DNA of 64,000 bases. It comes from a virus. Both the position numbers and the translations under genes were made by a program. Position 1 is the first letter of the stretch, and each line of letters begins with the position of its first letter. The notes beneath the pieces are model-generated. The model was not told the origin of the DNA and made no database searches. It saw only the letters and a program-made list of their open reading frames with translations. Location of the stretch: positions 1 to 64,000 of IMG/VR virus record IMGVR_UViG_3300023180_007965; one strand, 5' to 3'. Below are positions 22,424 through 41,442 of the stretch, in pieces.

Positions 22424-23215
22424 GTGGGCGCAGTTTTAGATTTTAACAGATTTGTTTTAAATGAGGATAAGATTGGTTCTTTTTATAACGATGAACTAAA
22501 TCCAAAGTTCTGGGACAAATACAAAAACAAGAATGGTGAAACCCAATGGGTCTTTGATAGGCTAGTAAGAAAAAAGCTGCTTAAGATAGCCGAAGACTTC
22601 TATGAAAAATATAGTGATCTATTGGGAGACCTACCTATCGAGGATATACAACTCACTGGATCACTAGCTAATTTTAACTATACAGATAAGTCAGATCTTG
22701 ATGTTCACGTGCTGGTTGACTTTAATAAGGTAAAGTCAAAACCAGAGATGGTAAAAGCAGCAGTTGATGGTATTAGGTTTGTTTGGAATCTAAGACATGA
22801 TGTTGTTATTAGAAACCATGACGTTGAGCTTTATCTCCAGAATATACACGAGCCACATACAGCTTCTGGCCTTTATTCCCTGCTTAATGATAAGTGGATT
22901 AGAAAACCAAAGTTTGATCCCCCGGAGGTAGACGAGCAAGATGTAAGAAAGAAGTTTGATGGATTAGCATCCGAGATTAATCAAATGGAATCAAAGCTTG
23001 TTATTTCTGCATCACTTCCCAAAGATGCAAAGGAGATGTATAAAAGACTTCTTAGGCTGAAGGAGAAGATACAGAAAATGAGAAAAGACGGACTTTCAAA
23101 GGACGGAGAATTCTCGATAGGTAACCTCGCCTTTAAAATGCTAAGAAACGAGGGATATATAAGTAAGCTCATAGATTTAATTTCAAAAGCTTACGCTAGA
23201 ATTTATTCAGAGTAA
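22424..23215 (+). CDS. Pol beta-like nucleotidyltransferase with capsid-targeting-like leader
   Basis: GTG 22424 gives 263 residues. The leader AVLDFNRFVLNEDK has the basic/aromatic, LNE-ending form expected of a T4-type capsid-targeting peptide cut after Glu14 by a gp21-type protease. The core is a DNA polymerase beta-type nucleotidyltransferase: LTGSLANFNYTDKSDLDVHV supplies Gly79-Ser80 and the metal Asp91 and Asp93, and VELYL (Glu135) offers a third acidic residue. The C-terminal 80 residues are helical and basic. It may transfer nucleotides to RNA, protein or small molecules; the substrate is unknown. It opens the head-gene run, which suggests a packaged and injected enzyme comparable in concept to T4 Alt. 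Confidence 0.72.
   Translation: MGAVLDFNRFVLNEDKIGSFYNDELNPKFWDKYKNKNGETQWVFDRLVRKKLLKIAEDFYEKYSDLLGDLPIEDIQLTGSLANFNYTDKSDLDVHVLVDFNKVKSKPEMVKAAVDGIRFVWNLRHDVVIRNHDVELYLQNIHEPHTASGLYSLLNDKWIRKPKFDPPEVDEQDVRKKFDGLASEINQMESKLVISASLPKDAKEMYKRLLRLKEKIQKMRKDGLSKDGEFSIGNLAFKMLRNEGYISKLIDLISKAYARIYSE
23154..23161 (+). promoter_or_regulatory. Candidate intragenic late promoter
   Basis: GATATATAA occurs near the end of the nucleotidyltransferase gene, 73 bases before the next ATG. It is an exact match to the other elements but within coding sequence. Confidence 0.3.
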
Positions 23216-23233
23216 AAACTTTATTAGAATAGC

Positions 23234-25933
23234 ATGATACTAGTATTTAGAAAGGGCCTTGAATATAATGGGAGCATGAACGGCCTCCCAGAAAACCAAG
23301 ACGAGAACATTTTCCCAATCATGTCGGTTCCTCTTGATTTAGAGGGCGAAGAAACTGACCTTAATGATTTTCAATGGTGGGCATATTCTGACAAGTGGAA
23401 TGAGTGGCTAAAAGATAACCCAAGAGAATGGAAAGCTGAATCTCATGACGTGAGGTTTGATAAGGCTGAGCAAATTTTAGAAGGTATAGTAACTGCTAAA
23501 AATCCTGTTACCGAATACGTTTCCCACCAGGCTAAGAGTTTATGGAAAAACGGTGAGGTTTCTTCCTTTTCTGATTATGTAAAAATGTTAGAAGCAGAAA
23601 GCACATCTGGATCTAGAGATGCTGCTAAGAAGTTTATTAAACTCGGGTATGCTTTAGAAAAACTTTCAAAAGAAGGAAAGCTTAAAGACGTCTTAAAGAT
23701 GGAAGATCTCGAAGATGATAAGGAATATGCGGTTGTTGTCGATCCAATGACCGAGAGCGGTGACCCAGTTCAAGAGGCAAGACAGGCTTTGAGAATAAAG
23801 AAAATTGGGGATTCTGCCGGTATCATTATAGCTGAGGTTGATTACAGCATCCCATTGGGTGAAGTAGAGGACACTAAGGATTTCATGGACAAGGTCGCAG
23901 AATTTGCTAAAGATGTAGCAATTGGAGGTGCAGGTCTTGCGGCACTTTATGGTGTAGCTCAAGTAGCTGGGTCTCTGTTCTTAGGATGGCAACTTTTAAA
24001 AGGAGCACGTGGTATTTACCGTACGCTCGGAAGGGCTAGAAGAATTCATAGCGCTGTTGCCGGTGCAAGAACTGCAGGAGCACCTGCTTGGAACACGGTT
24101 AGATCTTTTGCTACAAGAGCTTTTACAAGAAGAGCAGGGGCACAAGCAGTTGCAAATGCTGCTAGAATTACCTTACCTTCCGGTGCATTTGTTGAGGGCG
24201 GATTAGCTTACTCTACAAGAGCAACTGGAAATGTTCTTTTAAAAGGTGCAGCAGAAAAATCCGTTAAGTCAGCAGCACAAAGACTGGTAGCTCAAGGCGG
24301 AGCAAGAGCGGCAACAGCAGTAGCTGGTAGAGGAGCTGTAGCTGCTGGTGCAAGCTCAGCTGTAGCTGCTGAAGCTTCTAATCCAGTCGGATGGATTTTG
24401 CTAGCAGCTCAGGCAGTCGGTTCTGGAATTAATCAACTATGGAATTGGTATAGTGATAAACAAGCACCTAGGTACGGTGAAGTTGAGGACTTTGCATATG
24501 GAAGTTTTAATCCTAAAAATATTCCTGTAGGAAAGGCAATAACCGTTTGCTGGACTAGCGACGGTGGTGCAGGATGGGGTGAATATATCCTGGATATCTT
24601 AACTATGTCTAAGGATGATACTAGAACAACTATGGAATTGGTCAAACTTGGTGAGTTTGATGATAGGTCAGTTTTTGTAATGCTTCAAGTAAACTCAGAA
24701 ATGTTTGAAAAGGCTATGAAGGATAACGACCTTATACTACTGTCTTTTGCTAACAATGATAAATTTGAAAGAGGAACATTTGATAATGATGATCTGGAAT
24801 TCCAAACTATAGTTATTCCTGATATTACTGAACTTACAATTGGTACATCCTTTGTTGGATACTCAACATGGACCGAAATGAAAGAGGCTTATAAAGAGAG
24901 CCCTGATAGCCCAATTTACGTACCAAGCGGAGCAAGAAAGGATTATCAATTCCATTACACAGACAAGGACGGAAACGATGTAAATGTAACTGGAACCCTT
25001 GTAAATGAAAATGAGATAAGTGACACAGTCCTACAGGATTTAGTTCCTGGTGCAGCTGGTGCTGTTGAGGAATCTGCTAGTCCCGGTCTAGATTATTCGC
25101 ACCTGGTAAATGAAAGCAAGGTATTATCATTCAACGACTTCTCAAATAGAGCTAATCCTATAATGGAAGAAGACGAAAACTCTCCAGAAGAAGATGGGAA
25201 TACAGAAAATGCTGAGAGTACAGAATCCACTGAATCCACAGAAGGGAATACTTACGAGGAAGATTTGCTAACCTCTCTTTCTGCTGCATCTCCACTCGAG
25301 ACAGAATATAGTCAAATACCAGTATTAGCATATAGAGTTAATAGAATAAGTTTTGTCGACCCAACTGTTAATGAAGATGTTGATCAGTTTAACTACTTTA
25401 TAATCGGCGAGCAAAGTATGGATCCTAAACCAAATCAGCCAATCCTGGTTGAATCCGCTTCGGAGGATGCTATTGAAGAACCTAGATTTGGATTGAAAAC
25501 ATACGTACCTCCAGTAGAGGATGATGAAAAAAAGGATGATAAGGAAGATGAGATTGATGACCCTGAAGTAATTGATATCGAAGACGTCGATGAACCATCA
25601 TCTAAAATGGTAAGAACACAAAGAGGCGATGTTCAAATAAAAAGCAAATCAGGATCCCTAACTATTAAAGATAGAGAAATGGAAGGTGGCATTAACATCT
25701 TTGATGAATTTGCAAACTCTAGCTTGAAGAAAAAACTTAATATCGATGATTGGAAAAACATAACTAGCGTAAAGGTTAGGTATGATAATGAGGGAGAACC
25801 TAAAAAGGTAATTTTGAAAAACAGGTTTGCAAAAGTTGGTGATAGGAGAAGGGTTTTACAGAAAGGGGAGCAAGGATTTGAATCTGCTTTAAAATTTGCA
25901 GAGTCTGTAGAAGATGGTATATCTTTCTCCTGA
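23234..25933 (+). CDS. Large virion protein with hydrophobic helical core and leader-like motifs
   Basis: The 899-residue product starts at ATG 23234; an in-frame ATG at 23276 is an alternative. The first 210 residues are charged. Residues about 215-410 are rich in Ala, Gly and Val with repeated hydrophobic helices (VAIGGAGLAALYGVAQVAGSL, WILLAAQAVGSGI) separated by Arg-rich links. The rest is acidic, with a Glu/Ser/Thr-rich linker (about 640-680). Two internal segments, SFSDYVKMLEAES and LSFNDFSNRANPIMEED, look like capsid-targeting leaders or protease sites. A membrane-penetrating core in a head-module protein suggests an ejected channel protein, perhaps cut into parts. No named family is recognised. 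Confidence 0.55.
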   Translation: MILVFRKGLEYNGSMNGLPENQDENIFPIMSVPLDLEGEETDLNDFQWWAYSDKWNEWLKDNPREWKAESHDVRFDKAEQILEGIVTAKNPVTEYVSHQAKSLWKNGEVSSFSDYVKMLEAESTSGSRDAAKKFIKLGYALEKLSKEGKLKDVLKMEDLEDDKEYAVVVDPMTESGDPVQEARQALRIKKIGDSAGIIIAEVDYSIPLGEVEDTKDFMDKVAEFAKDVAIGGAGLAALYGVAQVAGSLFLGWQLLKGARGIYRTLGRARRIHSAVAGARTAGAPAWNTVRSFATRAFTRRAGAQAVANAARITLPSGAFVEGGLAYSTRATGNVLLKGAAEKSVKSAAQRLVAQGGARAATAVAGRGAVAAGASSAVAAEASNPVGWILLAAQAVGSGINQLWNWYSDKQAPRYGEVEDFAYGSFNPKNIPVGKAITVCWTSDGGAGWGEYILDILTMSKDDTRTTMELVKLGEFDDRSVFVMLQVNSEMFEKAMKDNDLILLSFANNDKFERGTFDNDDLEFQTIVIPDITELTIGTSFVGYSTWTEMKEAYKESPDSPIYVPSGARKDYQFHYTDKDGNDVNVTGTLVNENEISDTVLQDLVPGAAGAVEESASPGLDYSHLVNESKVLSFNDFSNRANPIMEEDENSPEEDGNTENAESTESTESTEGNTYEEDLLTSLSAASPLETEYSQIPVLAYRVNRISFVDPTVNEDVDQFNYFIIGEQSMDPKPNQPILVESASEDAIEEPRFGLKTYVPPVEDDEKKDDKEDEIDDPEVIDIEDVDEPSSKMVRTQRGDVQIKSKSGSLTIKDREMEGGINIFDEFANSSLKKKLNIDDWKNITSVKVRYDNEGEPKKVILKNRFAKVGDRRRVLQKGEQGFESALKFAESVEDGISFS

Positions 25934-25967
25934 TAAAAAAACGTCAAATTTTCTGAAAAAGAAAATG

Positions 25968-25975
25968 GATATATA
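25968..25975 (+). promoter_or_regulatory. Candidate late promoter (GATATATA)
   Basis: GATATATAAAGTT lies 27 bases before the protease-scaffold ATG at 26002. The same 13 bases recur inside that gene at 26634. Confidence 0.6.
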
Positions 25976-26001
25976 AAGTTAAATAATAGCAAAGTCAAGA
26001 A

Positions 26002-28017
26002 ATGAACGAGTCTTTATTGAATGGGAACCTTCTCTTCATCCTTGAAAAGCAAGAAAATAATCTTGCAGTTTCAAAGGACGGTAACTCGGATGGTGGTGGT
26101 TATATACTCAAAGGTATTGCTGCTCAGTTTGGGAAAGAGAATAATAACAATAGAATATACGAGGAAGGTGAATACCTACCTCACCTTGAGTACCTAAAGG
26201 ATAAGATAGGACAAAAGAGATTAGTTGGTGAATTAGATCACCCTGAAAAATTCGACGTATCTCTTAAAAACATTTCTCACGTTGTAGAAGATCTTGTTTA
26301 TGACAAGGACGGAAGAGTATTAAACATTAAGGTTCGTTTGCTTGACACACCAGCTGGACAAATTGCTAAGAAATTAGTTGATGCTGGTATACCTCTTTCT
26401 ATTTCTTCTAGAGCAGCTGGAAATGTAGGTCCAGATAAGAAGGTACAGATCAAAAAGATCTTTACTTATGATTTGGTTGCAGATCCAGGTTTCCAAGACG
26501 CTCAACTCGAGAGAGTTTATGAAAGCGCTGGATTTGATGCTTTTGAATTTGAAGAAAGATCAAAAAAATCCGTTGTTAACAACTTAGAGTGTGTAAATGA
26601 GTCACTAGGTATAGAAAATGAATCTGGGGTAAAGATATATAAAGTTGAAAATAGCGAAGAATTCGAAAAAATCCTTAATCAAGAAAAAAATAAATCCAAC
26701 ATTATGGAGGCCAACAAAGAATATGTTACTGCTGACGAGCTTAATAAGTATTCTATCTTTTTGAAAAATAAGATGGATGAGCTGGAAACGCAGATTTCTG
26801 AAATGAAACAACAAGAAGCTCAAGTTTCCGAGAGCGAAAGTGAATCTGTAGATTGCAAAGCTTTGGAGGAAAGAGTTGCTAAGCTAGAAAAGTACTCCGA
26901 GTATCTTGCTGAAAATCTAGAAAGTGCTATTAAGTACGGTGAGTATTTGTCAGAAAACCTAGATAGCAGCATTACGTATTCTAAGTACCTTGCTGAGAAT
27001 CTAGACAAGACTATCTCTTATTCTAAGTATTTGGCCGAAAATGTTGATAAGGGTATTTCTTACACTGAATATGTAGCTGAGAATGTTGATAAGACTATCG
27101 ACTATTCTAAGTATTTGGCAGAAAAACTAGATGATGGTATTCAATATACAGAATACGTGGCTGAAAATCTTGATAAGAATATCGCTTACTCTGAATACTT
27201 AGCAGAAAATGTTGATAAGAACATTGCTTACTCTGAGTATTTGGCAGAGAATCTAGATAAGGGTATTTCTTACTCTGAATATCTAGCAGAAAACTTAGAT
27301 AAGGGAATAGCTTACTCTGAGTACATTGCAGAAAAACTAGATCAAGGAATAAACTACACTGAGTACCTAGCAGAAAACCTAAATAAAGGTATTGCTTACT
27401 CAGATTATTTAGCTGAAAAGCTAAATGGAAATATAGCTAACACTGAAGCTATACACGAAAGCGTTAAAGCAGAAAACTCGCCAACACTTAACGAAAGTGC
27501 TAGGGAAAATGCTGAAAGCGCATCTAAAACTGAATTGGTTGAATCAGGATTTGCTGGAGATTATGAAAATCTCGGAAGCAAGATTGATTCTCTAATTGAA
27601 TCAGTCAAAACACAAAAGACTGAGGAAAATATAAATGAGGCACAAACGAAAGTTGAGCCGACTGCTCAAACACAAAAAGCAGATGAGGCAATCAACGAAG
27701 CCGAAGAAGAAACATTGGCAGGATCATCAGGTCACAAATTTATTGATGAAATGCCAGAAGATTACTCTCCGATTTGGGAGTCACTAAATGAAAGTCAAAA
27801 GCAATCAGTAATTGCACAATCAGCTTTCTATAACTTAGAGACTGCTTATCAGATCAAGAACTTCTGGTCAACTCGTCAGCTTGGTGCTAAACCAGTAGGA
27901 CTTCAGAAACTTCAAGAGAGCCAAGAAACACCAGAGCCTAAGACGGCTACTAACCCTCAGGGGTATTCAAACGATTACCTTAATTGGGTCGCTAAGTCGC
28001 TCGAAGGTAAGTTTTAA
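26002..28017 (+). CDS. 21: Prohead protease (T4 gp21-like) fused to a repetitive scaffold domain
   Basis: The 671-residue protein joins two functions. Residues 1-215 are a T4 gp21-type prohead protease, with GELDHP (His80) and PLSISSRA (Ser133-136 region) as the expected catalytic elements, and ending near DLVADPGFQDAQ. Residues about 235-295 are helical. Residues 298-479 are thirteen copies of a 14-residue unit of the type YSEYLAENLDKGIA, a coiled-coil-like rod. Residues 480-671 are acidic and contain LNESQKQS followed by NLETAYQIKNFW. In T4 the protease (gp21) and core scaffold (gp22) are separate. Here scaffold may also be made alone from Met235 (ATG 26704), which is preceded by a promoter-like element. 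Confidence 0.85.
   Translation: MNESLLNGNLLFILEKQENNLAVSKDGNSDGGGYILKGIAAQFGKENNNNRIYEEGEYLPHLEYLKDKIGQKRLVGELDHPEKFDVSLKNISHVVEDLVYDKDGRVLNIKVRLLDTPAGQIAKKLVDAGIPLSISSRAAGNVGPDKKVQIKKIFTYDLVADPGFQDAQLERVYESAGFDAFEFEERSKKSVVNNLECVNESLGIENESGVKIYKVENSEEFEKILNQEKNKSNIMEANKEYVTADELNKYSIFLKNKMDELETQISEMKQQEAQVSESESESVDCKALEERVAKLEKYSEYLAENLESAIKYGEYLSENLDSSITYSKYLAENLDKTISYSKYLAENVDKGISYTEYVAENVDKTIDYSKYLAEKLDDGIQYTEYVAENLDKNIAYSEYLAENVDKNIAYSEYLAENLDKGISYSEYLAENLDKGIAYSEYIAEKLDQGINYTEYLAENLNKGIAYSDYLAEKLNGNIANTEAIHESVKAENSPTLNESARENAESASKTELVESGFAGDYENLGSKIDSLIESVKTQKTEENINEAQTKVEPTAQTQKADEAINEAEEETLAGSSGHKFIDEMPEDYSPIWESLNESQKQSVIAQSAFYNLETAYQIKNFWSTRQLGAKPVGLQKLQESQETPEPKTATNPQGYSNDYLNWVAKSLEGKF
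26634..26641 (+). promoter_or_regulatory. Candidate internal late promoter for scaffold-only product
   Basis: GATATATAAAGTT repeats the gene's own upstream promoter exactly over 13 bases. It lies 63 bases before the in-frame ATG 26704 (Met235), just after the protease domain. Confidence 0.4.
26893..27438 (+). repeat. Thirteen tandem 42-bp repeats encoding 14-residue units
   Basis: The frame encodes 13 successive units of the form Y-S-x-Y-L-A-E-N-L-D-K-x-I-x with changes mainly at positions 2, 3, 11 and 14. The DNA copies have diverged at third positions. The period of 14 equals two heptads, as expected for a coiled-coil rod. Confidence 0.9.
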
Positions 28018-28043
28018 AAACTAAAAAAATAAAAGATAGTAAA

Positions 28044-29765
28044 ATGAAACTAATCAACGAAGCAGAAATCTTCGAAACCTGGTCTCCTATCATCGAGCAG
28101 AAGGCCGGTATTCAAGATGCTGAAAAAAAAGGATGGTTGAGCAAGTACTGCCACTACCATTCATTAAACGAGTCTGCTGGTGCATATCAGTCACTAGCAA
28201 CTGTAAACGGTATGGGTGCCGTACAACCACCCGCATACCCAGGTGGGTATAACTCCACTGGTTCTGCAGTAGGTACGCAAGCAAATTCTGCTTTCTATAA
28301 CTCTGCTAACCAAGGTTCAGGTGATAAGTTTCCTTCACTTCTTCCATTGGCAATTCAGGTTGCTGCGAAGACTGTTGGATTCGATATCGTTCCTGTAATT
28401 CCTATGTCAGGTCCTACTGGCGTACTTTCTTACCTAGATTACGTATACTCAGGTGGTAAAATCAGTCCTGCATCTGCTGGCGCAACATCTGCTGAAGCTC
28501 TTGCAACTGCACCTTCTATGATCAAGGTAGAATTGACAACCCCTGCAGCAGGTTATCCTGCTAACTTTGCAGTAGGTACTACTTACTACATCACTAACGC
28601 TTCTTCAGCTGGTGCATATATCACTACTGAGTTTGTTGGTCTATCTAGAATCGATGCATTCCCAATCTTTAGAGTTATGGGATTAACTGCTGGTGAGACT
28701 ATCTCTGCAGTTCTTGATGGTAACGCAGCTAAAATTGGTACTGCAGTAGATGGAAACCAAGCTGGTACTACAACTGCGAGAGCAGAATTGGTTAAAGCTC
28801 TTGAGGATCACATCCAAGGATTCTCTGGTGCTGGTTTCAACAACGACCAAGACTGGCAAGGACCATTCGTAGATGGTACTAAGACTTACAACCCAATGCT
28901 AAGAGGTGTTGGTGAGAGCACTTACTACCAATCAATGGGTCTATCAACGTTCACTAAGTTCGTCGAAGCTGATACTTTCCAAGTAGCTGCTTCAGTAACT
29001 ACTGAGCAGATCCAAGACCTTAACAAGCAATTCGGTATCGACGTAATTTCTATGATCGAGAACGCATTGGTTAATGAGGTATCTCAAGCTATTAACAAGC
29101 ACATCCTATCTAGAGCATTCGCTCTTGGTTGGTCTAACCACGACGAATTCTTGACTACAGAAGGTCAGAACTTGAACCTAAACCTCGTTATCGGTGGTAC
29201 TGCTGGTTCTTACACTATTCCTTCTTACATAGGTAAGTCTGACTCTGGTATCTCTATCGCTTCTGTTGCAGGTCCTGCTTCAGGAACTTACGAGAACTTG
29301 TCAACTCTACAGAGAAGACTATTCTCTAGAATTCTAGCATCTGCTAACGTGGTTGCTAACAGAGGAAGAAGAGGTCCTGCTAACTTCATCGTTACTAACG
29401 CTAACGTTGCAAGTGCATTGCAAGACATCTCTCAGTTCACTTTCGCACCTTTCTCTAACACTCTAACTCAGAACAACGGTACACTTTACCCAGTAGGTTC
29501 TCTTGCTGGTATGACCGTATATGTTGATCAGAACATGAAGTTCGGTGATAACAGAGTATTAGTAGGTAGAAAAGGTGGTGACGACGAACCAGGACTTAAG
29601 TTCATGCCTTACATGATGGCTGAGTCTATCCAAACAATCTCTGAAGGTACTATGTCACCTAAGATTGCGGTTAAGTCTCGTTACGCACTAGTAGAAGCTG
29701 GTTTCCACCCAGAAACTATGTACTTCTGTTTCCACGTGAACGTTCCTGCTGGAGGTCTATCCTAA
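28044..29765 (+). CDS. 23: Major capsid protein (T4 gp23-like)
   Basis: The 573-residue protein is the gp23-type major capsid protein (T4 521). The N-terminal 43 residues contain MKLINEAEIFETWSPIIEQ and end in HSLNE/S, a fitting site for gp21-type cleavage that would remove the delta domain. Beyond are the conserved FPSLLPLAIQVAAKTVGFDIVPVIPM segment, the AFNDQDW-like GFNNDQDWQGPF, YQSMGLSTFTKF, LSRAFALGW, NRGRRGPANFIV and YMMAESIQTISEGTMSPKIAVKSRY. HK97-fold strands are evenly spaced. Codon choice is more C-ending than in its neighbours (frequent TAC, AAC, TTC), typical of highly expressed genes. It follows the protease-scaffold gene and ends at a strong terminator. Confidence 0.95.
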   Translation: MKLINEAEIFETWSPIIEQKAGIQDAEKKGWLSKYCHYHSLNESAGAYQSLATVNGMGAVQPPAYPGGYNSTGSAVGTQANSAFYNSANQGSGDKFPSLLPLAIQVAAKTVGFDIVPVIPMSGPTGVLSYLDYVYSGGKISPASAGATSAEALATAPSMIKVELTTPAAGYPANFAVGTTYYITNASSAGAYITTEFVGLSRIDAFPIFRVMGLTAGETISAVLDGNAAKIGTAVDGNQAGTTTARAELVKALEDHIQGFSGAGFNNDQDWQGPFVDGTKTYNPMLRGVGESTYYQSMGLSTFTKFVEADTFQVAASVTTEQIQDLNKQFGIDVISMIENALVNEVSQAINKHILSRAFALGWSNHDEFLTTEGQNLNLNLVIGGTAGSYTIPSYIGKSDSGISIASVAGPASGTYENLSTLQRRLFSRILASANVVANRGRRGPANFIVTNANVASALQDISQFTFAPFSNTLTQNNGTLYPVGSLAGMTVYVDQNMKFGDNRVLVGRKGGDDEPGLKFMPYMMAESIQTISEGTMSPKIAVKSRYALVEAGFHPETMYFCFHVNVPAGGLS

Positions 29766-29860: not shown

Positions 29861-30961
29861 ATGAGGAAAATAAGCTCACATAAACAGTTCCTTATTGAAA
29901 GGGATCTTTCGGTAGAAGTAGATCAGGTGGTGTTAGCTGAAATGCTTCTGGACTATTATGGATTAAACGAGGGAAAGGCATTGGATACTCTTAAAAATTC
30001 GATTTCTAAAGCTTTATTTGGTCCTTTCTCCAGATTGTCTGTTATAGACACAATCAGGAAAGGAAATCTCGATATACAAAAGGAGATCATTAGAAAACAG
30101 TATGATGTGGAAGATGAAATCCTAGATCTGGAGGATAGGATAGAGGAGCTGAGAAAGAGCGGATCCTCTAGGAGCGATATTTCACGAATTCAAACACAGA
30201 TTGAAAGAAAGAGAAAGGAATATAGATCTTTTGTTAAAATGAAGAAGGAGCAGACCAATAAAGGGATGAAACTTCTTGAGAAAACAATAGGTAAAAATCC
30301 AAGAAGGAGAGAATATTACGAGGCTGGATTCTTAGACGATAAATACGAACTTGCAAAGTTTGAATTTGAACTTGCACAACAGAAATCTGCTGAAGCTGGA
30401 AATCTAAAAGATCTAAAGAAGGATCTTGAAGACGCTGCTAAAAAAGCAGAATCCTTTGTAGTAAAGACAAAAAGCTCTGCACAAACTAAGGGGAAAATAA
30501 AAGACTCCGAACTTGAGGATGTATCTGCTTTGAGAAAGAGAATCTCAGCAAATGATATGGGCGTTATAATATCTCTAAGAGAAAAGTCTAGGGATAGAAT
30601 AAAGGAGCTTAAATCACAAATGTCCAAGATTCTTAGCGATATGAAGGGATTTATTTCAAAATCTCCTACATACGAGGAGGTTAAAGCTTCTGGAAAAATA
30701 ACAAAGGGTATAAACGATCTCGAATCCAAAGCTAATGAGATGGATTCATTAGATAACCTTTCTAAGGTTTACTCTGATGTTATTTCTTCAAAGGGTAAAT
30801 CTATTTCCAATGAATCATCATTGACTAGCTTATTTGGTAAGATTAACTCTGCTATTTCCGATGGAAATGATGCAGGATCTGGTGTTACTAAAGATGTTGT
30901 GGATATGAAATCGGACATCACATTGAAAAAGATTGGAAATCTAATAAAAAAATTGTCCTAA
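29861..30961 (+). CDS. Putative internal head protein, coiled-coil, with capsid-targeting-like leader
   Basis: The 366-residue protein starts MRKISSHKQFLIERD, the basic/aromatic pattern ending in LIE/R that resembles T4 capsid-targeting peptides. A second possible cut is LNE/G at about residue 37. The rest is highly charged and helical, with Lys/Glu-rich coiled-coil stretches at about 75-125 and 165-210 and small basic patches. There is no enzymatic motif. It is the first of four adjacent genes with such leaders directly after the capsid gene, so head packaging is likely. T4 internal proteins IPI-IPIII are similarly charged but much smaller. Confidence 0.6.
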   Translation: MRKISSHKQFLIERDLSVEVDQVVLAEMLLDYYGLNEGKALDTLKNSISKALFGPFSRLSVIDTIRKGNLDIQKEIIRKQYDVEDEILDLEDRIEELRKSGSSRSDISRIQTQIERKRKEYRSFVKMKKEQTNKGMKLLEKTIGKNPRRREYYEAGFLDDKYELAKFEFELAQQKSAEAGNLKDLKKDLEDAAKKAESFVVKTKSSAQTKGKIKDSELEDVSALRKRISANDMGVIISLREKSRDRIKELKSQMSKILSDMKGFISKSPTYEEVKASGKITKGINDLESKANEMDSLDNLSKVYSDVISSKGKSISNESSLTSLFGKINSAISDGNDAGSGVTKDVVDMKSDITLKKIGNLIKKLS

Positions 30962-30963
30962 AG

Positions 30964-31857
30964 ATGCTTTTAAAATTTAAAGAGTGGGAATCACAAAACA
31001 TAAATGAAGGGGATGTTAGCCTTGATAAGATTATGAATTGGCTTAGCTCTAATTTTGGTGGTACAATATCTAAAATAGATTCTTTGCTTTCCAAAATAAG
31101 TTCCATAGAAACCCAATATTCTAAAGACTGGAATGATATCCAGACTGATATAGATGCACTGGAGGTAAAGAAAGCTCAAACAAAGAGCGATCCTGCTGAA
31201 GCTAAGAAGCTGGAAAGAATGATTGATAGGAATCAGAAATTGCTTACAGCTTTAAACAAGAAAAGAAAAGCGGACATAGCTAAGGTTGATGATAAAGTAG
31301 AAAAATTAACTAAAGGTAAAACAAGACTTGTTTCTTATTGGAATTTAAAGAAGGCTGAATTGGAAGCAGATCTCGCCGAGAGTATGTACAAGATGGCTAA
31401 AGATCTTACTGACGAATCTGTTGCTGATGAATTGTACGACAAATACAAAGAGGCAGCACTTCAAGCGAAATCTAAAGATGAGAAGTTTAGGGAAAGGTTT
31501 GGTAAGTTGGAATTAGCTAAGCCCTCCACTCTTAAATCAGATACTGAGTCTAAGGCTATATCAGGTGCTAACTTTTCAATGGATCCTATCTTTTCAATGA
31601 ACGCTCCCCAATTTACTAAATTCGTTCAGGATTTGGAAAAGAGTCAGGTAAGCGCATTAATCAAAGCCATGCAATCCGAAAGAAATGAAAGATATGCTAC
31701 TTTAGATACCGAAAGAGATAGACTTGAAGCTCAAGCTGAAAAGAAAGGTTTGTCTCGGGATAGTGTGAAGAGGGATCTTTCAGATCTACGTGAAACTCTA
31801 ATGAGACAAATTAGGGATTTGAGAACTAAAATAACTATTGCTAGAAGATATGCTTAA
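30964..31857 (+). CDS. Putative internal head protein, coiled-coil, with capsid-targeting-like leader
   Basis: The 297-residue protein begins MLLKFKEWESQNINEGD. The leader is basic/aromatic and ends INE/G, a fit to gp21-type cleavage after Glu15. What remains is a Lys/Glu-rich helical protein with coiled-coil regions at about 40-120 and 235-295. It resembles the preceding protein in composition and layout and may be a diverged paralogue, though no long identical stretch is visible. It begins two bases after the previous stop and its end overlaps the next gene's ATG. Confidence 0.6.
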   Translation: MLLKFKEWESQNINEGDVSLDKIMNWLSSNFGGTISKIDSLLSKISSIETQYSKDWNDIQTDIDALEVKKAQTKSDPAEAKKLERMIDRNQKLLTALNKKRKADIAKVDDKVEKLTKGKTRLVSYWNLKKAELEADLAESMYKMAKDLTDESVADELYDKYKEAALQAKSKDEKFRERFGKLELAKPSTLKSDTESKAISGANFSMDPIFSMNAPQFTKFVQDLEKSQVSALIKAMQSERNERYATLDTERDRLEAQAEKKGLSRDSVKRDLSDLRETLMRQIRDLRTKITIARRYA

Positions 31858-32119
31858 TCGTATTAAAAAACTAAATGAGTTTCCCTTATTGGAAGGTGTA
31901 AACGAGGATTTGGTAAAAGCAAAGGCTGATGTGAATGAAAAGCAAGCAGAAATTGCCGAAGAAATAGCAAAGCAGAAAGAAACCACAGATCTTAAGGAAA
32001 AAGCTGCTAGTATAAGAAACCAGGCTAGACTTGCTGGTCAGATGCCTTCTTTATTGAATGCGCTGGCAAATGCAATGGATGCAAAGGCTGATTCTGGTGA
32101 CACAACAAATATTTATTAA
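31850..32119 (+). CDS. Small putative internal head protein with capsid-targeting-like leader
   Basis: ATG 31850 gives 89 residues; a TTG at 31838 is in frame, but the ATG gives the leader MLNRIKKLNEFPLLEGVNED. This is basic/aromatic and ends in LLE/G with VNE/D close behind, so cleavage after Glu15 is predicted. The remaining 70 residues are a charged helix (about 20-55) and a helical tail rich in Ala, Asn and Met. Size and style match T4 internal proteins. The ATG overlaps the previous stop by 8 bases, so it is translationally coupled within the operon. Confidence 0.6.
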   Translation: MLNRIKKLNEFPLLEGVNEDLVKAKADVNEKQAEIAEEIAKQKETTDLKEKAASIRNQARLAGQMPSLLNALANAMDAKADSGDTTNIY

Positions 32120-32122: not shown

Positions 32123-34516
32123 ATGGCAAACAATTATCTTAGGAATAACCCAGTAGCGAATCAATTGTCGATTGACACATTTAGATTGTTTGAAAATCAG
32201 GATGTTGACAAAGCTCTTGAAATAGCAGTCGATACTCTTTTAGGGGTCTTCAAAAAAATCACTTTTGATCTAGCTTCGGATAGGAATAGATCTTTTGAAT
32301 CTTTTTCTAAAAAGCTTATGGGAGTGGGCGAGGCATCTTCTTTTAAATCACTGATTGCTAACATAAAAGACGTTTGTGGGGATATTGAGCTTGCTGATCC
32401 TATTTTGGCACCACTTAAAAAGATGTATCTTGATTCTATCGATACGTTGGGTGATGCTATCAAAAGAATGATAGAGTTAGATCCATCACTAGAAGCAAAA
32501 GCTATTGAATATTTCAAAAAAGCTAGCAAAAGATTGTTGGAAACAATTAAAAGAGTTGCTGACCAATACCAGGAAAGGATAAACGAATCCCAAGCTATTG
32601 GTGTTCCTGGCAGAATGGAGAGGCTTAAGAGAATCTTGGTAAATCACATTATGGATTCAAAGGGAAAGGATGCAAAAGCTGGTTATGGTAGGGATTGGCA
32701 CAGATTGTTTACTACTTTGGAACAGAAACTTTCTTCCATAAATGCCGATAAAGCAACATTCTCAGATGGTGATAGAAAAAATCTCGCAGAACTTGAAAAG
32801 AAGACTGATAGCTTAACACAAGAGTACAATCAGTACAAAGTTAGAGCGGCTGAAACCGTGATGAGCAAGATTATCAAGGATCCTGACCTAGAGTCAAAAT
32901 TTGCTGATTATATTGAGATCATGACTAATGCCTTAGATGGTGTTACGAAAGCAAATACCGAGGAGGGCCTTATCGAGGTAAAAGTACGTGAGATCCTTGA
33001 TGATAAGGAAACTAAAATGCAGGATAGGGTATTCCCACTGAAAGTTGGTGATAAGGACAATGACGGTAAGCTTAAGGGTTCTGGCTTGATTCAGACAGTC
33101 CAGAAGGCACTTATTGATGCCTTTATACCGATTAAAAATCTTTTGGATCCTAGAGGTGGTGCTAATGGTAAATTTGAAACCCCAACTAGTGTTGCTGTAA
33201 AGTCTATACAAGCTTCACTTGGAAATAAAGATGTGAATGGTACTTTGGATAAGCCTTTATTGGATGTTATTTTAAAGCTGGATCAGGTGTCTGGAGAAAA
33301 TAAAGATGCAATAAAAGAAGCTATTTCAAAGCTTAGGGTTTCTTATTCATCAATGAGTGAGTCTACAAGCGCATTAAGTGTTACCGAATTTATGAGGCTG
33401 ATGGAAGCTATGACTTATATAGATCCTAATGAAATAGAGGATAAAATCAAAATGTACAGTGAGGAAATAACTGAAGATGATGATTCTGTTGCACAACCAA
33501 CTACCTCTGACTACACCATGGCTGAAAGACTGGCTAAGATGTTAAGGACTAAGAATTACAACAAAAACGCGGAGACAGAAGATTTTCTTAAGGAGGATGG
33601 TACTTTAAAGGGATCTTGTCCCCAAGATTTTATTGACGGCTGGACAAAAGCAATATCTGGTGATAAGTCTGTTTCCTTCTTTTTTATAGAGGATGAGAAT
33701 GGAGGTTCACTTTATCCTACTAAGAGATTATCTTGTAATGTGAATAAGCCATGTAACTGGAAAAGGTATAAATCTATTGCTGGAGATGAAACAGACGACG
33801 TTCACAATTTTGGAAAATGGTACACGACATACTGGAAAAATTTTGGTGGCGTTGGTTCTGAAATCAAGTCAAAAGTTTTGGATGATGTAATGAAGTCCAA
33901 TTGTTCATTGGCTAAAGAGGAAAAACTTTCCGATGTTATAACGATCTACGAAGATCTTGAGAACTCTTTCATGCCTCATAAGGATGAAATATCACATGGC
34001 TATCTTAGACCAAATTCAATAAAGGAGATTTCTTCTGGAATAAAGGGTATGTTAGGTAATGATGGTGTTTCTAATCTTAGTCCTGCTGAACTAAGAGCTT
34101 TATATAACTCAGTTGTCCTAATTTCTCCCCTAATCACATTTGATAGAGAAAGAGATGAATGGGTACCAGCACTATCCTTCCTATGTAAGACACTGGATTT
34201 AACTGAAGATGAGCTATTATCTGGGATTAAGAAAAGTAGTTCCTTAGGAAAGAAAGGCAAAATGAGTTCTGAAAAAGTAGCTTATCTTGATACTAAATCC
34301 TTACAGGATGGAGGTGATAGTGAAATTTTGAAATCAACTGTTATCGGTAGCACAGAGGATCCAGAGAAGATAAACAACATGAAATCAACACTAGATAAGG
34401 TTAAGTCTGTACTAAAGAGTCTTTCCAAACACACTAAGAGAATTAGTATAAGCGATGTTGGTGATATTACTCCTGATATTTCTGATTCTGTTGTTGTTAT
34501 CTCTATGGCCAAGTAA
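32123..34516 (+). CDS. Large putative internal head protein with peptidoglycan-binding-like segment
   Basis: The 797-residue protein starts four bases after the previous gene. Its N-terminus has LSIDTFRLFENQD, a leader-like segment with a possible LFE/N cut near residue 24. Helical charged regions cover about 30-300. Residues about 315-395 hold two repeats of a pattern like D-x-D-G-x-L-x-G and SVAVKSIQASLG-x-x-D-x-NGTLDKP, which recall PG_binding_1 domains. A cysteine-containing middle (GSCPQDFIDGW, CNVNKPCNWKRY) follows, then a helical C-terminal part. It may be ejected with DNA or act on the cell wall. Neither role is shown by a catalytic motif. Confidence 0.5.
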   Translation: MANNYLRNNPVANQLSIDTFRLFENQDVDKALEIAVDTLLGVFKKITFDLASDRNRSFESFSKKLMGVGEASSFKSLIANIKDVCGDIELADPILAPLKKMYLDSIDTLGDAIKRMIELDPSLEAKAIEYFKKASKRLLETIKRVADQYQERINESQAIGVPGRMERLKRILVNHIMDSKGKDAKAGYGRDWHRLFTTLEQKLSSINADKATFSDGDRKNLAELEKKTDSLTQEYNQYKVRAAETVMSKIIKDPDLESKFADYIEIMTNALDGVTKANTEEGLIEVKVREILDDKETKMQDRVFPLKVGDKDNDGKLKGSGLIQTVQKALIDAFIPIKNLLDPRGGANGKFETPTSVAVKSIQASLGNKDVNGTLDKPLLDVILKLDQVSGENKDAIKEAISKLRVSYSSMSESTSALSVTEFMRLMEAMTYIDPNEIEDKIKMYSEEITEDDDSVAQPTTSDYTMAERLAKMLRTKNYNKNAETEDFLKEDGTLKGSCPQDFIDGWTKAISGDKSVSFFFIEDENGGSLYPTKRLSCNVNKPCNWKRYKSIAGDETDDVHNFGKWYTTYWKNFGGVGSEIKSKVLDDVMKSNCSLAKEEKLSDVITIYEDLENSFMPHKDEISHGYLRPNSIKEISSGIKGMLGNDGVSNLSPAELRALYNSVVLISPLITFDRERDEWVPALSFLCKTLDLTEDELLSGIKKSSSLGKKGKMSSEKVAYLDTKSLQDGGDSEILKSTVIGSTEDPEKINNMKSTLDKVKSVLKSLSKHTKRISISDVGDITPDISDSVVVISMAK

Positions 34517-34566: not shown

Positions 34567-34567
34567 A

Positions 34568-37388: not shown

Positions 37389-37396
37389 ATTACTTC

Positions 37397-37427: not shown

Positions 37428-37428
37428 A

Positions 37429-38109
37429 ATGGCTAATAATATTAAATCCTTTGAGGATTTTAAATCTGATATAGCTCAGGAAGTAAACGAGAGCTGGTTC
37501 TCTGATATACTTGGGTATGCTGGAGGTGCATTTAGCGATGTTCTAAAAGGTAAAGCATCTGCTTACCTTATGAGTTTCTTTGGTATTGGTGAGCAATCTA
37601 TATTTAGTAAACTTGTACAGAACTTTGTAGAACAAATTCCAATTGCAGATTTAACCAAAATTATATTTGCTGGTAAGGCAAATTCTGCTTACCTTGCTCC
37701 AAAAATGGCTGACGCAACTATAGAATTCCTTTCTGAGAAAGGTCTAGACGGGATAGCAGAGGATCTCCATATAGAGCCTTCTGGATGGATTTACAGGACA
37801 TTATCAGAGATAATAAGCAACCAAGCAAGAAGGGAAAATTTCAGGGAATCCTTGGTTAAATTTTACTTGCAAGCATTTAATGGATTTGAAAGTCCTGATG
37901 TCGAGGAATTTAAAAGTTCTTTATCTTCCATGGATAAAAGAAGTCTGGAAAGGGGTCTAGAGGATGCTTCCAGAAGATCTGGTGCTGATTTAGATGTGGC
38001 ATCTAGCGAAGCTGGAAGGGATATGGTTACTGACTTTTTATCTGGATTAGCTGGTGATGGTCAATCAATGCAATCTCTCGGATTAAGTACTGGGGGAACA
38101 ATACAATAA
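37429..38109 (+). CDS. Putative internal head protein with capsid-targeting-like leader
   Basis: The 226-residue protein begins NNIKSFEDFKSDIAQEVNES, a good basic/aromatic leader with predicted cleavage at VNE/S. After it comes a small-residue- and aromatic-rich helical region (ILGYAGGAFSDVLKGKASAYLMSFFGIG) that could insert in membranes, then amphipathic helices to a Gly/Ser-rich end. No enzyme motif is seen. It lies behind a late promoter in the second cluster of leader-bearing genes, apart from the capsid gene cluster. An ejected membrane-active protein is a fair guess. Confidence 0.6.
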   Translation: MANNIKSFEDFKSDIAQEVNESWFSDILGYAGGAFSDVLKGKASAYLMSFFGIGEQSIFSKLVQNFVEQIPIADLTKIIFAGKANSAYLAPKMADATIEFLSEKGLDGIAEDLHIEPSGWIYRTLSEIISNQARRENFRESLVKFYLQAFNGFESPDVEEFKSSLSSMDKRSLERGLEDASRRSGADLDVASSEAGRDMVTDFLSGLAGDGQSMQSLGLSTGGTIQ

Positions 38110-38122
38110 AAATACTAATATC

Positions 38123-38488
38123 ATGAATATAAATGACGTAGCAAAGAGAGAGGTTTTAGACTTTGATCAATTTAAGAAAAAGGTACACGACGAAACATAC
38201 AAACCATTCGCTGCTGAAAATCAAGAAGGTGGTGAAGGAAAGACTGGACTACATAGGATAAAAAGAGAGCCTGCTTACGATTGGGTTGGCTATGCTGATG
38301 CAGTATTTAGCCCAGAAAAAGCGGGAATCGAGGTTCCTGGATATAATGCTGATGGTGACAGAGAGTACAACATTGCAAATGCTGGTCCTTCTATAGTAAA
38401 TGCCCCAAATTCTTCTATCTCTGGATTGGGAGAATCTGAAACACCAGTTAATGAATCGTTTTCAATTAAGAGGTTAGAAGATTTCTAA
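38123..38488 (+). CDS. Small putative internal head protein
   Basis: The 121-residue protein opens with REVLDFDQFKKKVHDE, again an aromatic/basic helix of the leader type but ending HDE rather than L-x-E. The remainder is Gly/Asn/Ser/Pro-rich and probably flexible. The last residues (VNESFSIKRLEDF) resemble a second leader at the C-terminus, including VNE/S. It follows the previous leader-bearing gene by 13 bases and precedes a terminator. No family is recognised. Processing of both ends in the prohead is possible. Confidence 0.5.
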   Translation: MNINDVAKREVLDFDQFKKKVHDETYKPFAAENQEGGEGKTGLHRIKREPAYDWVGYADAVFSPEKAGIEVPGYNADGDREYNIANAGPSIVNAPNSSISGLGESETPVNESFSIKRLEDF

Positions 38489-38513
38489 CATAACCGGTTT
38501 TGATAAATCTTAT

Positions 38514-38547
38514 AAGACAAGTTTCACCCGAAACTTGTCTTTTTTTA
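38514..38547 (+). terminator. Rho-independent terminator
   Basis: AAGACAAGTTTC pairs perfectly with GAAACTTGTCTT over twelve base pairs around the loop ACCC, followed by a T-run. It ends the unit begun at 37429. Confidence 0.92.
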
Positions 38548-38581
38548 TGTAATATAAAAAAACAAAGATCCGGATCTCACA

Positions 38582-39979: not shown

Positions 39980-40005
39980 GGTAAAGAAGAATTATGTTTG
40001 ATATT

Positions 40006-40014
40006 CTATATATT
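40006..40014 (-). promoter_or_regulatory. Candidate late promoter for the minus-strand gene
   Basis: On the minus strand the sequence AATATATAG (one mismatch to the GATATATA family) lies about 27 bases before the ATG that ends at 39979. Confidence 0.45.
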
Positions 40015-40016
40015 AT

Positions 40017-40024
40017 CCCCGGGG
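40017..40024. promoter_or_regulatory. CCCCGGGG palindrome between divergent promoters
   Basis: An eight-base all-GC palindrome stands out in AT-rich DNA, between the minus-strand promoter at 40006 and the plus-strand promoter at 40063. It may be an operator controlling both directions. Confidence 0.35.
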
Positions 40025-40062
40025 TATACTTCTGGACTTTTAAAGAACCCATTTTAGGTTGT

Positions 40063-40070
40063 GATATATA
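40063..40070 (+). promoter_or_regulatory. Candidate late promoter (GATATATA)
   Basis: GATATATAA lies 25 bases before ATG 40095 in the only divergent intergenic region. Confidence 0.6.
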
Positions 40071-40094
40071 ATACATAAAAATAGTGGTCCCATC

Positions 40095-40532
40095 ATGCCA
40101 AGAATAGACGATTATATTTCATTCAGCTCCAATAAGAAAAACAACGTTTCTAGCGAGTTTATCTTTTCAAAAGAACTGGGCTTGTTAGACGTTGAGGTTG
40201 TTAATAGGCCTCCTGAGATTTCTGATGTTGATTCGTTAGAATGTGAAATTGAATACAAGGTTGGCATAGAAAGAAGAAAAGATGGGATACAGGACCTGAA
40301 CTTTTCTATAGAGGAAATAGAACTTGAAATTAAAGTCGACGATTATCCAAACGAACAGAAGGAATTTGAATTTGATATAGTACCAGATGTAAACATCGCT
40401 ATTCCTTCCATTGTAATCCAGAAGGGGTCGAGATTAGTCCCAACAGATCCTTCTTTTGCAAGAATTGATATGAGAAAGTCGATGAATCCCAAAGACTTCA
40501 GAATCCAAATACTCTTTGGAACCAATGAATAA
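40095..40532 (+). CDS. Hypothetical acidic beta-rich protein
   Basis: The 145-residue protein is Ile/Val/Glu-rich with alternating strands, such as SLECEIEYKVGIE and FSIEEIELEIKV, suggesting a small beta-sandwich. No family is recognised. It lies after a late-type promoter and its end overlaps the next gene by 8 bases, so the two form a unit. A virion or assembly role would fit its place among leader-bearing genes, but nothing specific shows it. Confidence 0.6.
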   Translation: MPRIDDYISFSSNKKNNVSSEFIFSKELGLLDVEVVNRPPEISDVDSLECEIEYKVGIERRKDGIQDLNFSIEEIELEIKVDDYPNEQKEFEFDIVPDVNIAIPSIVIQKGSRLVPTDPSFARIDMRKSMNPKDFRIQILFGTNE

Positions 40533-41442
40533 AGCACTTAAATTTGGCCAGTTTGGGAGAATTTTTGAATCTCTGGGGATATCTAAAAAGGATGTTGGAC
40601 TAATTGGTCCAAATATGTCTGGCGAAATAAAGCTTAGAATACCTAATCCTGGTATCACATTAAAGAGAATAGACGATGGTGATAACTTTACTTTTCAAAT
40701 GGGTGAGAAGTCTTGTTCGGTGCCTAAAAAATATGTAGGTCTCACCACTCAACCTGGGTATGACATTATTTCCTTTGATACTAATATGAACTGGTTCAGG
40801 GAAGACGATAATGGTGAAAAAATTTCGGATATCATAGAGGAATATGTTTCTTCTCAGTATAAAGAACTTTCAAAGGTTGCTAATCAACTTGAGGATGATG
40901 CTAATATGATTTTAGATATTTTGGGTATTAAGGAGGATGTAAAAACATTTAATTCTAATTCACCCTTACAAATGGACGGGCAAATTTCAAATGGGATGGA
41001 ATTTGAAATTGAAAAGGAGAAACCGGAAGACTTATTTAAGAAGATCTTTATTTATAAAACTACTGATGAGATACATCCTTTGATTTCTATAAAAAGAAAA
41101 GGCGGCAGATTTAATTGTGTTTATAGAACTCCAAAGGGAAATTTTGAATGTAAACATGATTCTATTAAGGGAATGCTTGATAACCCAGTTGATAAGTATT
41201 TGCTCTCTGTGTGTAACGGAGGAGACAATAATAAAAATCAAAGGGATCTCGTGGACCACCTCATGAAGCTTTTTAAGTATCATTCCTGGGATAAATCCTC
41301 TTCACCAAAGAAGGATGATAAGCATCTTGATGAAAGGAGGGAGATTAAAAAGGTAATGAACATTCTTAAAAATACTATTCCTGAACAGCACATTGAGGAA
41401 ATGTATTCTGATGCTAGATCCAAATTTCTGGGTAATTCATAG
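40525..41442 (+). CDS. Putative head-targeted protein with capsid-targeting-like leader
   Basis: ATG 40525 gives 305 residues; an in-frame TTG at 40516 adds only three. The leader MNKALKFGQFGRIFESLG is basic/aromatic and has a possible IFE/S cut. The rest looks like a globular alpha/beta protein with a Cys-containing region FNCVYRTPKGNFECKHD, a helical segment (SSQYKELSKVANQLEDD) and a Lys-rich C-terminus. No catalytic pattern is recognised. Its overlap with the preceding gene indicates coupling. Cargo status is inferred from the leader only. Confidence 0.55.
   Translation: MNKALKFGQFGRIFESLGISKKDVGLIGPNMSGEIKLRIPNPGITLKRIDDGDNFTFQMGEKSCSVPKKYVGLTTQPGYDIISFDTNMNWFREDDNGEKISDIIEEYVSSQYKELSKVANQLEDDANMILDILGIKEDVKTFNSNSPLQMDGQISNGMEFEIEKEKPEDLFKKIFIYKTTDEIHPLISIKRKGGRFNCVYRTPKGNFECKHDSIKGMLDNPVDKYLLSVCNGGDNNKNQRDLVDHLMKLFKYHSWDKSSSPKKDDKHLDERREIKKVMNILKNTIPEQHIEEMYSDARSKFLGNS

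What the first reader, a model, noticed from the sequence alone, without database searches (positions are those of the whole stretch)
22424..41442. Set of proteins with T4-like capsid-targeting leaders: a packaged cargo system
Starts at 22424, 29861, 30964, 31850, 37429 and 40525, and less clearly 19425, 32123 and 38123, all begin with a short basic/aromatic helix and then a site of the type L/I/V-x-E before a small or charged residue (LNE/D, LIE/R, INE/G, LLE/G, VNE/S, IFE/S). T4 internal proteins carry MKTYQEFIAEA-type targeting peptides cut by gp21. A gp21-type protease is encoded here, and most of these genes flank the capsid gene. The passengers are diverse, including an enzyme, coiled-coil proteins and possibly membrane-active proteins. 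This would be an unusually large head cargo set.
Basis: partly seen in the sequence, partly recalled or inferred. Interest (0 to 1): 0.85.

Follow-up and report, generated by a model that had tools for sequence, protein, structure and literature searches.

The report
Head-packaging tags in huge phages
A group of large, uncultured phages puts the same short removable address tag on many unrelated proteins, very like the tag phage T4 uses to load proteins into its head, so these viruses probably carry a sizeable kit of proteins, enzymes included, in the particle.

Summary
The leaders are real. Seven window genes (22424, 29861, 30964, 31850, 32123, 37429, 40525) start with an aromatic-x-x-aromatic block and then an aliphatic-x-Glu site. 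In six of these families the Glu is kept in 245 of 248 non-redundant members although the leaders vary. In five of the six the next-best leader columns include the aromatics, the positions mapped by mutation in T4's capsid targeting sequence. A matrix trained on these families ranks T4 ipI, ipII and ipIII among the top four of 281 T4 genes. In relatives, genes outside the training families carry the tag far above chance: 41/526 N-termini against 9/1098 internal windows in a 373-kb contig. Passengers include adenylate kinase, a RimK-type protein and peptidoglycan-hydrolase domains. New here: the protease-scaffold protein holds 13 tandem copies of the tag pattern, suggesting cargo joins the core by mimicking scaffold. 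Two of nine proposed members (38123, 19425) fail and one cut site was misplaced. LxE alone is not enriched. Packaging, cleavage and injection are untested; the widely shared window genes may be core proteins rather than injected cargo.

The parts
22424..22465 (+). Leader of NTase gene 22424-23215: MGAVLDFNRFVLNE|D
   Evidence: Glu in 38/39 non-redundant members, leader length 11-28; AlphaFold2: residues 1-20 mean pLDDT about 50, folded domain from about residue 20
22466..23215 (+). Passenger: Pol-beta-superfamily nucleotidyltransferase (motif GS...SDLDVHV)
   Evidence: phrog_36119 E 2e-37, NTP_transf_2 18.3 bits, below its cut-off of 21; Foldseek best AAD(9) E 4e-4; VIA-align Z about 6 to AadA/MNT chains
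26002..28017 (+). Prohead protease (Peptidase_S77) fused to scaffold
   Evidence: PF03420 E 4.5e-7, phrog_207 E 8.8e-33
26884..27429 (+). 13 tandem 14-residue scaffold repeats, Y-x-x-Y-[LIV]-x-E-[NK]
   Evidence: 13 of the 16 internal [FYW]xx[FYW][LIVM]xE matches of the own proteome lie here
28044..28172 (+). Propeptide of the major capsid protein (gp23 family), ending LNE|S
   Evidence: PF07068 E 6.4e-41; Glu in 49/50
29861..29971 (+). Leader of 29861-30961, conserved site LNE|G at residue 37
30964..31008 (+). Leader of 30964-31857: MLLKFKEWESQNINE|G
   Evidence: 52/52 members; passenger in the same BLAST family as 29861
31850..31894 (+). Leader of 31850-32119: MLNRIKKLNEFPLLE|G
   Evidence: 41/41 members
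32123..32194 (+). Leader of 32123-34516: ...QLSIDTFRLFE|N
   Evidence: 40/41 members
37429..37491 (+). Leader of 37429-38109: MANNIKSFEDFKSDIAQEVNE|S
   Evidence: 35/36 members; AlphaFold2 all-helical, mean pLDDT 62.6, residues 1-24 under 50
40525..40569 (+). Leader of 40525-41442: MNKALKFGQFGRIFE|S
   Evidence: leader present in both homologs seen, G002:307929-308864 and G004:59044-60024, pairwise identities 21-36%
38123..38488 (+). Rejected member: conserved N-terminal stretch without a kept cut site
   Evidence: Glu 24/36, P3 A/S/T
19425..19907 (+). Rejected member: IKTINEFF start, no cut-site pattern
   Evidence: 0/35 combined motif, alignment
23234..25933 (+). Possible further head protein with internal tag-like stretches (FSDYVKMLEA; VLSFNDFSNRANPIMEE)
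   Evidence: loose patterns in 30/44 and 36/44 homologs, no chance control

Best explanation
The leaders are removable head-targeting tags of the T4 capsid-targeting-sequence type. During prohead assembly the aromatic-x-x-aromatic block docks a tagged protein on the scaffold core. The core protein is itself a string of 13 copies of nearly the same motif (YSEYLAEN), so a leader is probably a single-unit mimic of the scaffold repeat and co-assembles with it. The S77 protease fused to the scaffold then cuts after aliphatic-x-Glu in the scaffold repeats, the capsid propeptide and the leaders. That dismantles the core and frees the passengers inside the head, and at least some of them enter the host with the DNA. 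Shown: the motif, its conservation, its spread over unrelated passengers, the statistical match to T4's internal proteins, the protease domain and the scaffold repeats. Inferred: docking by mimicry, cleavage, packaging and injection.
For: Glu kept in 245/248 members of six families while the leaders vary in sequence and length. In four of six families the Glu is the best-kept leader column, and in five of six the aromatics are among the next best, the positions mapped in T4 IPIII (PMC9026906 passages). T4 positive control: ipI, 61.1, ipII and ipIII are the top four of 281 genes. Genes outside the training families: G002 41/526 N-termini vs 9/1098 internal windows, p 2.9e-13; G004 22/349 vs 9/852, p 1.2e-6; G008 11/186 vs 4/545, p 1.2e-4. 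Shuffled N-termini that keep the Met give 1.2% (G002) and 1.6% (G004) at the same threshold. A matrix-free regex built from the T4 residues, spacer up to 2: G002 22/536 vs 14/1184, p 1.7e-4; G004 24/358 vs 14/948, p 3.1e-6. 23 of 244 reciprocal-best pairs carry the tag in both genomes vs 5 of 784 aligned internal windows. The tag precedes known domains: ADK from residue 27, and a weak Rimk_N match (E 0.0077) from residue 24. The Lak homolog of G002:247676 begins next to the predicted cut. Scaffold repeats: 13, 12 and 13 copies in own, G002 and G004.
Against: No proteomics. In the window's own genome the T4-residue regex is not significant (4/73 vs 8/377, p 0.11), and genes outside the training families give 3/66 vs 3/326, p 0.06. 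32123 keeps other leader columns better than the aromatics. T4 has tags, but its 269-residue protein at 104117 (gp22 by position, recalled) has no exact scaffold repeat, so scaffold mimicry is not required in T4. Some hits are false: a 38123 homolog in G008, an RNase-HII-like protein (named from recall), and probably several with spacers over 20. The tagged window genes near the capsid are widely shared, which fits core proteins as well as cargo.
Confidence: 0.82

Rival explanations
1. The widely shared window genes (29861, 30964, 31850, 32123, 37429) are structural core or inner-body proteins, comparable to T4 gp67/gp68, that are cut by the protease but not injected. True cargo is only the variable tagged set elsewhere in the genome.
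For: They lie just downstream of or within 10 kb of the capsid gene and have 36 to 52 non-redundant members each. 29861 and 30964 read as coiled-coil (sequence), and 37429 is predicted all-helical. No Pfam match above its cut-off was found in them.
Against: Same tag as variable enzyme passengers. T4 IPs are also in the core and are then ejected.
Confidence: 0.4
2. The leader is a localisation signal for some other phage structure (membrane, replication compartment), and the LxE pattern is incidental.
For: Tagged genes lie all over the large contigs, many far from head genes.
Against: The Glu is the first, second or third best-kept leader column in all six families. The matrix picks out the T4 internal head proteins. 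phiKZ, PAU and crAss001 show no enrichment.
Confidence: 0.07
3. Chance or composition: short amphipathic N-termini with a common tripeptide.
For: LxE alone is not enriched; the own-genome regex is not significant.
Against: Shuffled and internal controls, out-of-sample genomes, kept Glu in 245/248, T4 positive control.
Confidence: 0.02

Closest known systems
T4 internal proteins IPI-IPIII with capsid targeting sequence (CTS) and gp21 protease
   Same: N-terminal 10-19-residue propeptide; residues 4 and 7 for targeting and 8 and 10 for processing (passages of PMC9026906); S77-type protease; unrelated passengers sharing only the leader
   Different: Spacer between block and cut site runs to about 30 residues; protease fused to scaffold; scaffold made of 12-13 tag-like repeats; many more tagged genes per genome in the large relatives; passengers include metabolic and protein-modifying enzymes
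Internal proteins of T4-related phages found by their leader
   Same: Leader shared by unrelated proteins that are packaged and injected; at least 10 reported in related phages (passages of PMC12373910)
   Different: The three characterised there (Ip1-3) are GmrSD inhibitors; here 41 non-training hits in one 373-kb contig (about 4 expected by chance), including adenylate kinase, a RimK-type protein, CHAP and SLT domains
phiKZ / SPN3US head proteins processed by the S80 protease
   Same: Large head, many internal proteins, cleavage after x-x-Glu, Ser favoured at P1' (passages of PMC10052503)
   Different: A-x-E rather than aliphatic-x-E; most SPN3US propeptides 111-254 residues; 14 sites in 9 SPN3US proteins; the tag matrix finds no enrichment in phiKZ (first 277 kb)

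Membership tests
T4-type CTS head proteins | Short N-terminal leader with aromatic-x-x-aromatic targeting block | tested here: met
   Second aromatic column 0.95-1.00 in 29861, 31850 and 37429, 0.85 in 30964 (first aromatic 0.96), 0.67 in 22424; not among the top five columns of 32123, where 32/41 members carry a loose block
T4-type CTS head proteins | Aliphatic-x-Glu processing site closing the leader | tested here: met
   Glu in 245/248 members of six families; P3 mostly L, I or V, though 37429 also has T and A
T4-type CTS head proteins | gp21-type (S77) prohead protease in the same genome | tested here: met
   PF03420 30 bits, cut-off 27; phrog_207 E 8.8e-33
T4-type CTS head proteins | Leader shared by non-homologous passengers | tested here: met
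   independent recovery of T4 ipI-III
T4-type CTS head proteins | Leader outside the folded passenger | tested here: met
   NTase residues 1-20 pLDDT about 50, then about 90; ADK domain begins at residue 27 and solved kinases align from query residue 24 at their residue 2. Checked for these two passengers only; the 37429 model is too poor to tell
T4-type CTS head proteins | Incorporated in the prohead, cut in vivo, injected | not testable with these tools
   No virion proteome; the phage is known to me only from metagenomic contigs
T4-type CTS head proteins (candidates 38123 and 19425) | Kept aliphatic-x-Glu site after the aromatic block | tested here: not met
   38123: 24/36 with A/S/T at P3; 19425: 0/35 by combined regex
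phiKZ/SPN3US-type processed head proteins | A-x-E or S-x-E cleavage motif | tested here: not met
   P3 is mostly L, I or V. Peptidase_S80 scores 22.5 bits, below its 23.4 cut-off
Pol-beta nucleotidyltransferase (passenger of 22424) | GS-x(n)-DxD motif and NTase fold | tested here: inconclusive
   Motif present; Pfam NTP_transf_2 18.3 bits, cut-off 21; Foldseek E 4e-4 to AAD(9) but TM about 0.22; VIA Z about 6 over about 105 residues

The most novel reading that the evidence does not exclude
The phage core is a polymer of its own cargo tag. The scaffold is 12-13 tandem copies of the targeting-and-cutting motif, cargo proteins wear one copy, and the fused protease cuts both alike, so acquiring a 10-15-residue leader is enough to make any gene product a packaged, injected protein. 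Large members of the clade would load some 20-40 different proteins this way (adenylate kinase, RimK-type protein, nucleotidyltransferase, peptidoglycan hydrolases and many unknowns).
Probability: 0.45. Interest if true: 0.87.

Novelty: new variant of a known kind. Interest (0 to 1): 0.74.

Why it matters
It gives a sequence-readable list of what a huge-phage clade probably delivers with its DNA, in viruses whose genes are mostly of unknown function. It turns an old question about T4 heads (how the targeting sequence recognises the core) into a concrete test: does the leader copy the scaffold repeat? If so, the tag offers a portable way to load proteins into phage heads, and a screen for injected host-takeover and anti-defence proteins in uncultured phages.

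Tried and rejected
LxE at N-termini as evidence by itself: not enriched in the window. Members 38123 and 19425: rejected. LIE/R as cut site of 29861: replaced by LNE/G. The crude regex missed 32123 (7/43) and flagged families that look false, 16121 (5/7, internal rate 0.36) and 21651 (11/38), so I relied on alignments. Further tag carriers: PAU, phiKZ and crAss001 show no enrichment; Lak-C1 (p 0.029 at threshold 7, 0.011 at 8) and PTm1 (0.047, 0.082) show a weak excess by the matrix, LR756500 p 0.013 and 0.022. By the T4-residue regex Lak-C1 and PTm1 show none at spacer 0 or up to 2 (Lak-C1 p 0.0078 at spacer up to 30), LR756500 p 0.021 and 0.037, T4 p 0.13 and 0.031. Using the NTase to name a function: Foldseek and VIA matches are partial, the top VIA rows are helical bundles matching only the C-terminal half, and PDB profile hits to DrrA (E 0.044 and 0.083) are too weak and were not followed. 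The AlphaFold2 model of 37429 (mean pLDDT 62.6) was too poor to search. The mBio paper on jumbophage capsids including PAU (two passages by keyword) showed nothing on internal proteins. Internal tag-like stretches in 23234 (30/44, 36/44) use loose patterns without a chance control, so no claim is made. Literature: the listings (several capped at 12-20 of more papers) showed no title or abstract start on such leaders in huge phages of this kind or on tag-like scaffold repeats; subscription papers are not held, so this is weak evidence of absence.
Full report
Setting. The window is bases 1-64000 of an 84,454-base virus record of unknown completeness. It encodes a gp23-type capsid protein (28044-29765, PF07068 E 6.4e-41), and just upstream a Peptidase_S77/phrog_207 prohead protease fused to a long repetitive scaffold (26002-28017). 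By capsid protein the nearest named records are an uncultured huge phage (LR756500, 45%), Prevotella Lak phages (45%) and Tenacibaculum phage PTm1 (31%). 80 viral-contig loci with the capsid gene (the best 80 of 210) and 20 with gene 22424 were collected, and 1761 ORFs were called in these and the few other loci held then.

Is the observation there? The genes are. The tripeptide alone is not special: 23 of 60 window genes have [LIVM]xE plus a permitted residue in the first 25 positions, against 207 of 699 internal blocks. The evidence lies in conservation. Aligned homologs keep a leader of different sequence and length in front of a conserved passenger, with the site at the join. In six families the Glu column holds Glu in 38/39, 39/39, 52/52, 41/41, 40/41 and 35/36 non-redundant members (245 of 248). 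P3 is mostly L, I or V, and P1' mostly G, A, S, D, N, K or R. Leader lengths of 10 to 54 residues were counted from the most upstream start, so the upper values include some over-called starts. Rows dropped: members shorter than 0.6 of the window protein and near-identical copies; 29861 and 30964 form one BLAST family and were split at 340 residues. In four of the six the Glu is the best-kept leader column; in 37429 it is second after the second aromatic, in 32123 third after N9 and A12. In the other five families the aromatics are among the next best (F7/F10, F10, F5/W8, F11, F8/F11). The capsid propeptide ends in the same kind of site (LNE|S, 49/50). Negative results: 38123 (24/36, P3 A/S/T) and 19425 do not qualify, and 29861's site is LNE|G at residue 37, not LIE|R.

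Link to T4. A T4 review (PMC9026906, passages) states that the first 10 residues of IPIII suffice for targeting, that targeting maps mainly to residues 4 and 7 and processing to 8 and 10. The ipIII start as read from AF158101 puts Tyr, Phe, Ile and Glu there: the pattern found here. As a test outside the clade, a 7-residue matrix trained only on the window's syntenic families, followed by an aliphatic-x-Glu, was run over T4: its four best genes of 281 are ipI, 61.1, ipII and ipIII. At threshold 8 the counts (N-termini vs internal windows) are own 7/73 vs 2/361, G002 38/536 vs 6/1125, G004 24/358 vs 7/891, T4 9/281 vs 3/471, LR756500 (first 237.8 kb) 11/330 vs 8/670, PTm1 7/313 vs 6/679, Lak-C1 15/647 vs 17/1770, PAU 3/296 vs 6/688, phiKZ 4/365 vs 5/854 and crAss001 1/124 vs 0/344. 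Shuffled N-termini that keep the Met give rates close to the internal ones, so the obligatory Met does not make the excess. A regex taken from the T4 residues alone, spacer up to 2, gives G002 22/536 vs 14/1184 (p 1.7e-4), G004 24/358 vs 14/948 (p 3.1e-6), T4 7/281 vs 3/495 (p 0.031), LR756500 11/330 vs 10/713 (p 0.037), own 4/73 vs 8/377 (p 0.11), and no significant excess in PAU, crAss001, phiKZ, Lak-C1 or PTm1.

A genome-wide tag in the relatives. Dropping everything homologous to the training families and the capsid leaves 41 of 526 genes in G002 (373 kb), 22 of 349 in G004 (271 kb) and 11 of 186 in G008 (163 kb) at threshold 7, against 9/1098, 9/852 and 4/545 internal windows; own 3/66 vs 3/326 (p 0.06) and G007 3/83 vs 5/430 are not significant. 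At the internal rate about 4 of G002's 41 would be chance. Some are plainly doubtful: a 38123 homolog in G008, an RNase-HII-like protein (named from recall), and hits with spacers over 20. As a stricter count, among 244 reciprocal-best gene pairs of G002 and G004, 23 carry the tag in both members at threshold 6 (12 in one only), against 5 of 784 aligned internal windows. Of the 34 passengers picked, 30 were scanned against Pfam: 27 of G002 (26 of its 41, and 247676 at score 6.6) and 3 of G004. Ten more followed (nine of G008, one of G002 that scores below 6). Of the first 30, 22 match nothing at E 0.01 and two match only below cut-off. The other six are an adenylate kinase (PF00406, domain from residue 27 after MESKIKAFNEFLNE|), a RimK-type ATP-grasp protein (with a weak Rimk_N match from residue 24), a CHAP domain, two SLT transglycosylase domains and a peptidoglycan-binding domain. 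The kinase and the RimK-type gene are tagged in G008 too. Solved kinases align from query residue 24 at their residue 2, so the tag plus about nine residues is an extension. The Lak-C1 homolog of the tagged gene G002:247676 begins next to the predicted cut and has no leader. By eye, NTase homologs of Lak-C1, Maribacter phage Molly_1 and Synechococcus phage DSL-LC03 lack the leader pattern, while those of huge phages LR756504 and LR745206 start tag-like (LNEF; FYEF) without a clear site. The tag therefore behaves as a module.

The scaffold. The scaffold part of 26002-28017 is 13 tandem 14-residue units such as TISYSKYLAENVDK. Each holds aromatic-x-x-aromatic-aliphatic-x-Glu, the T4 tag pattern without a spacer. 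Of all matches to that pattern beyond residue 40 in the proteome, 13 of 16 (own), 12 of 29 (G002) and 13 of 31 (G004) lie in this one protein, with no other protein above one. The 642-kb huge phage LR756502 has 11 such units in its scaffold, and two tag-like starts within 9 kb of it; LR756500 has only two exact units. T4's 269-residue protein just upstream of the gp23 gene (gp22 by position, recalled) has none, and no PTm1, Lak-C1, PAU, phiKZ or crAss001 protein scanned holds more than two. This suggests, without proving it, that leaders act as single scaffold units, and that one protease dismantles the core and releases cargo by the same cut.

What is carried in the window. 22424 is a Pol-beta-type nucleotidyltransferase with an intact GS...DLD motif. 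AlphaFold2 gives mean pLDDT 83.5, with residues 1-20 near 50 and the fold starting at about 20. Structure matches to AAD(9), AadA and MNT proteins are partial, so the substrate is open. 29861 and 30964 are related to each other and read as coiled-coil proteins; 37429 is predicted all-helical at low confidence. Because these genes are widely shared and lie near the capsid gene, some may be core proteins that stay structural; that rival is given 0.4.

Limits. The window and its relatives G002, G004, G007 and G008 are metagenomic contigs of unknown completeness. ORFs came from a simple caller with most-upstream starts plus later ATGs in the first 40 residues. G002, G004 and G008 are related, so their counts are not independent. 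The PAU, phiKZ and LR756500 scans are partial as listed. No proteomics was available. Packaging, cleavage and injection are inference from T4 (passages).

Noticed in passing
L150 (AF158101 18966-19130): T4 gene 61.1, annotated hypothetical, scores with ipI-ipIII in the leader matrix (MKTFKEFIKE|D): a predicted fourth tagged T4 protein.
   Followed up: partly
9665-11275 and 11286-12881: Two adjacent ORFs fall in one homology family and look, by recall, like portal proteins: apparently a duplicated portal gene.
   Followed up: no
47567-49822: The protein contains a tandem repeat of about 25 residues (DDVYENVPGEDLGVPDRVYPQVN type) in its C-terminal third.
   Followed up: no
L237:12929-14797 (G008:111929-113797): A 622-residue tagged gene (MDKAINFKDFSNSNVSE|A) with no Pfam or PHROGs match sits next to the 29861 homolog of a relative, where the window has no such gene.
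   Followed up: partly
L251 (LR756502): A 642-kb huge phage has 11 tag-like scaffold repeats and a small gene about 8 kb away starting MKHVNKFSEFITE|E.
   Followed up: partly
L146, L149 (NC_019521): The Sphingomonas phage PAU record labels gp142 and gp154 internal capsid proteins and gp1 an internal capsid vertex protein ('mango'); no tag enrichment was found there.
   Followed up: partly
23234-25933: A large alanine-rich protein between the NTase and the protease carries two internal tag-like stretches, seen by loose pattern in 30/44 and 36/44 homologs.
   Followed up: partly
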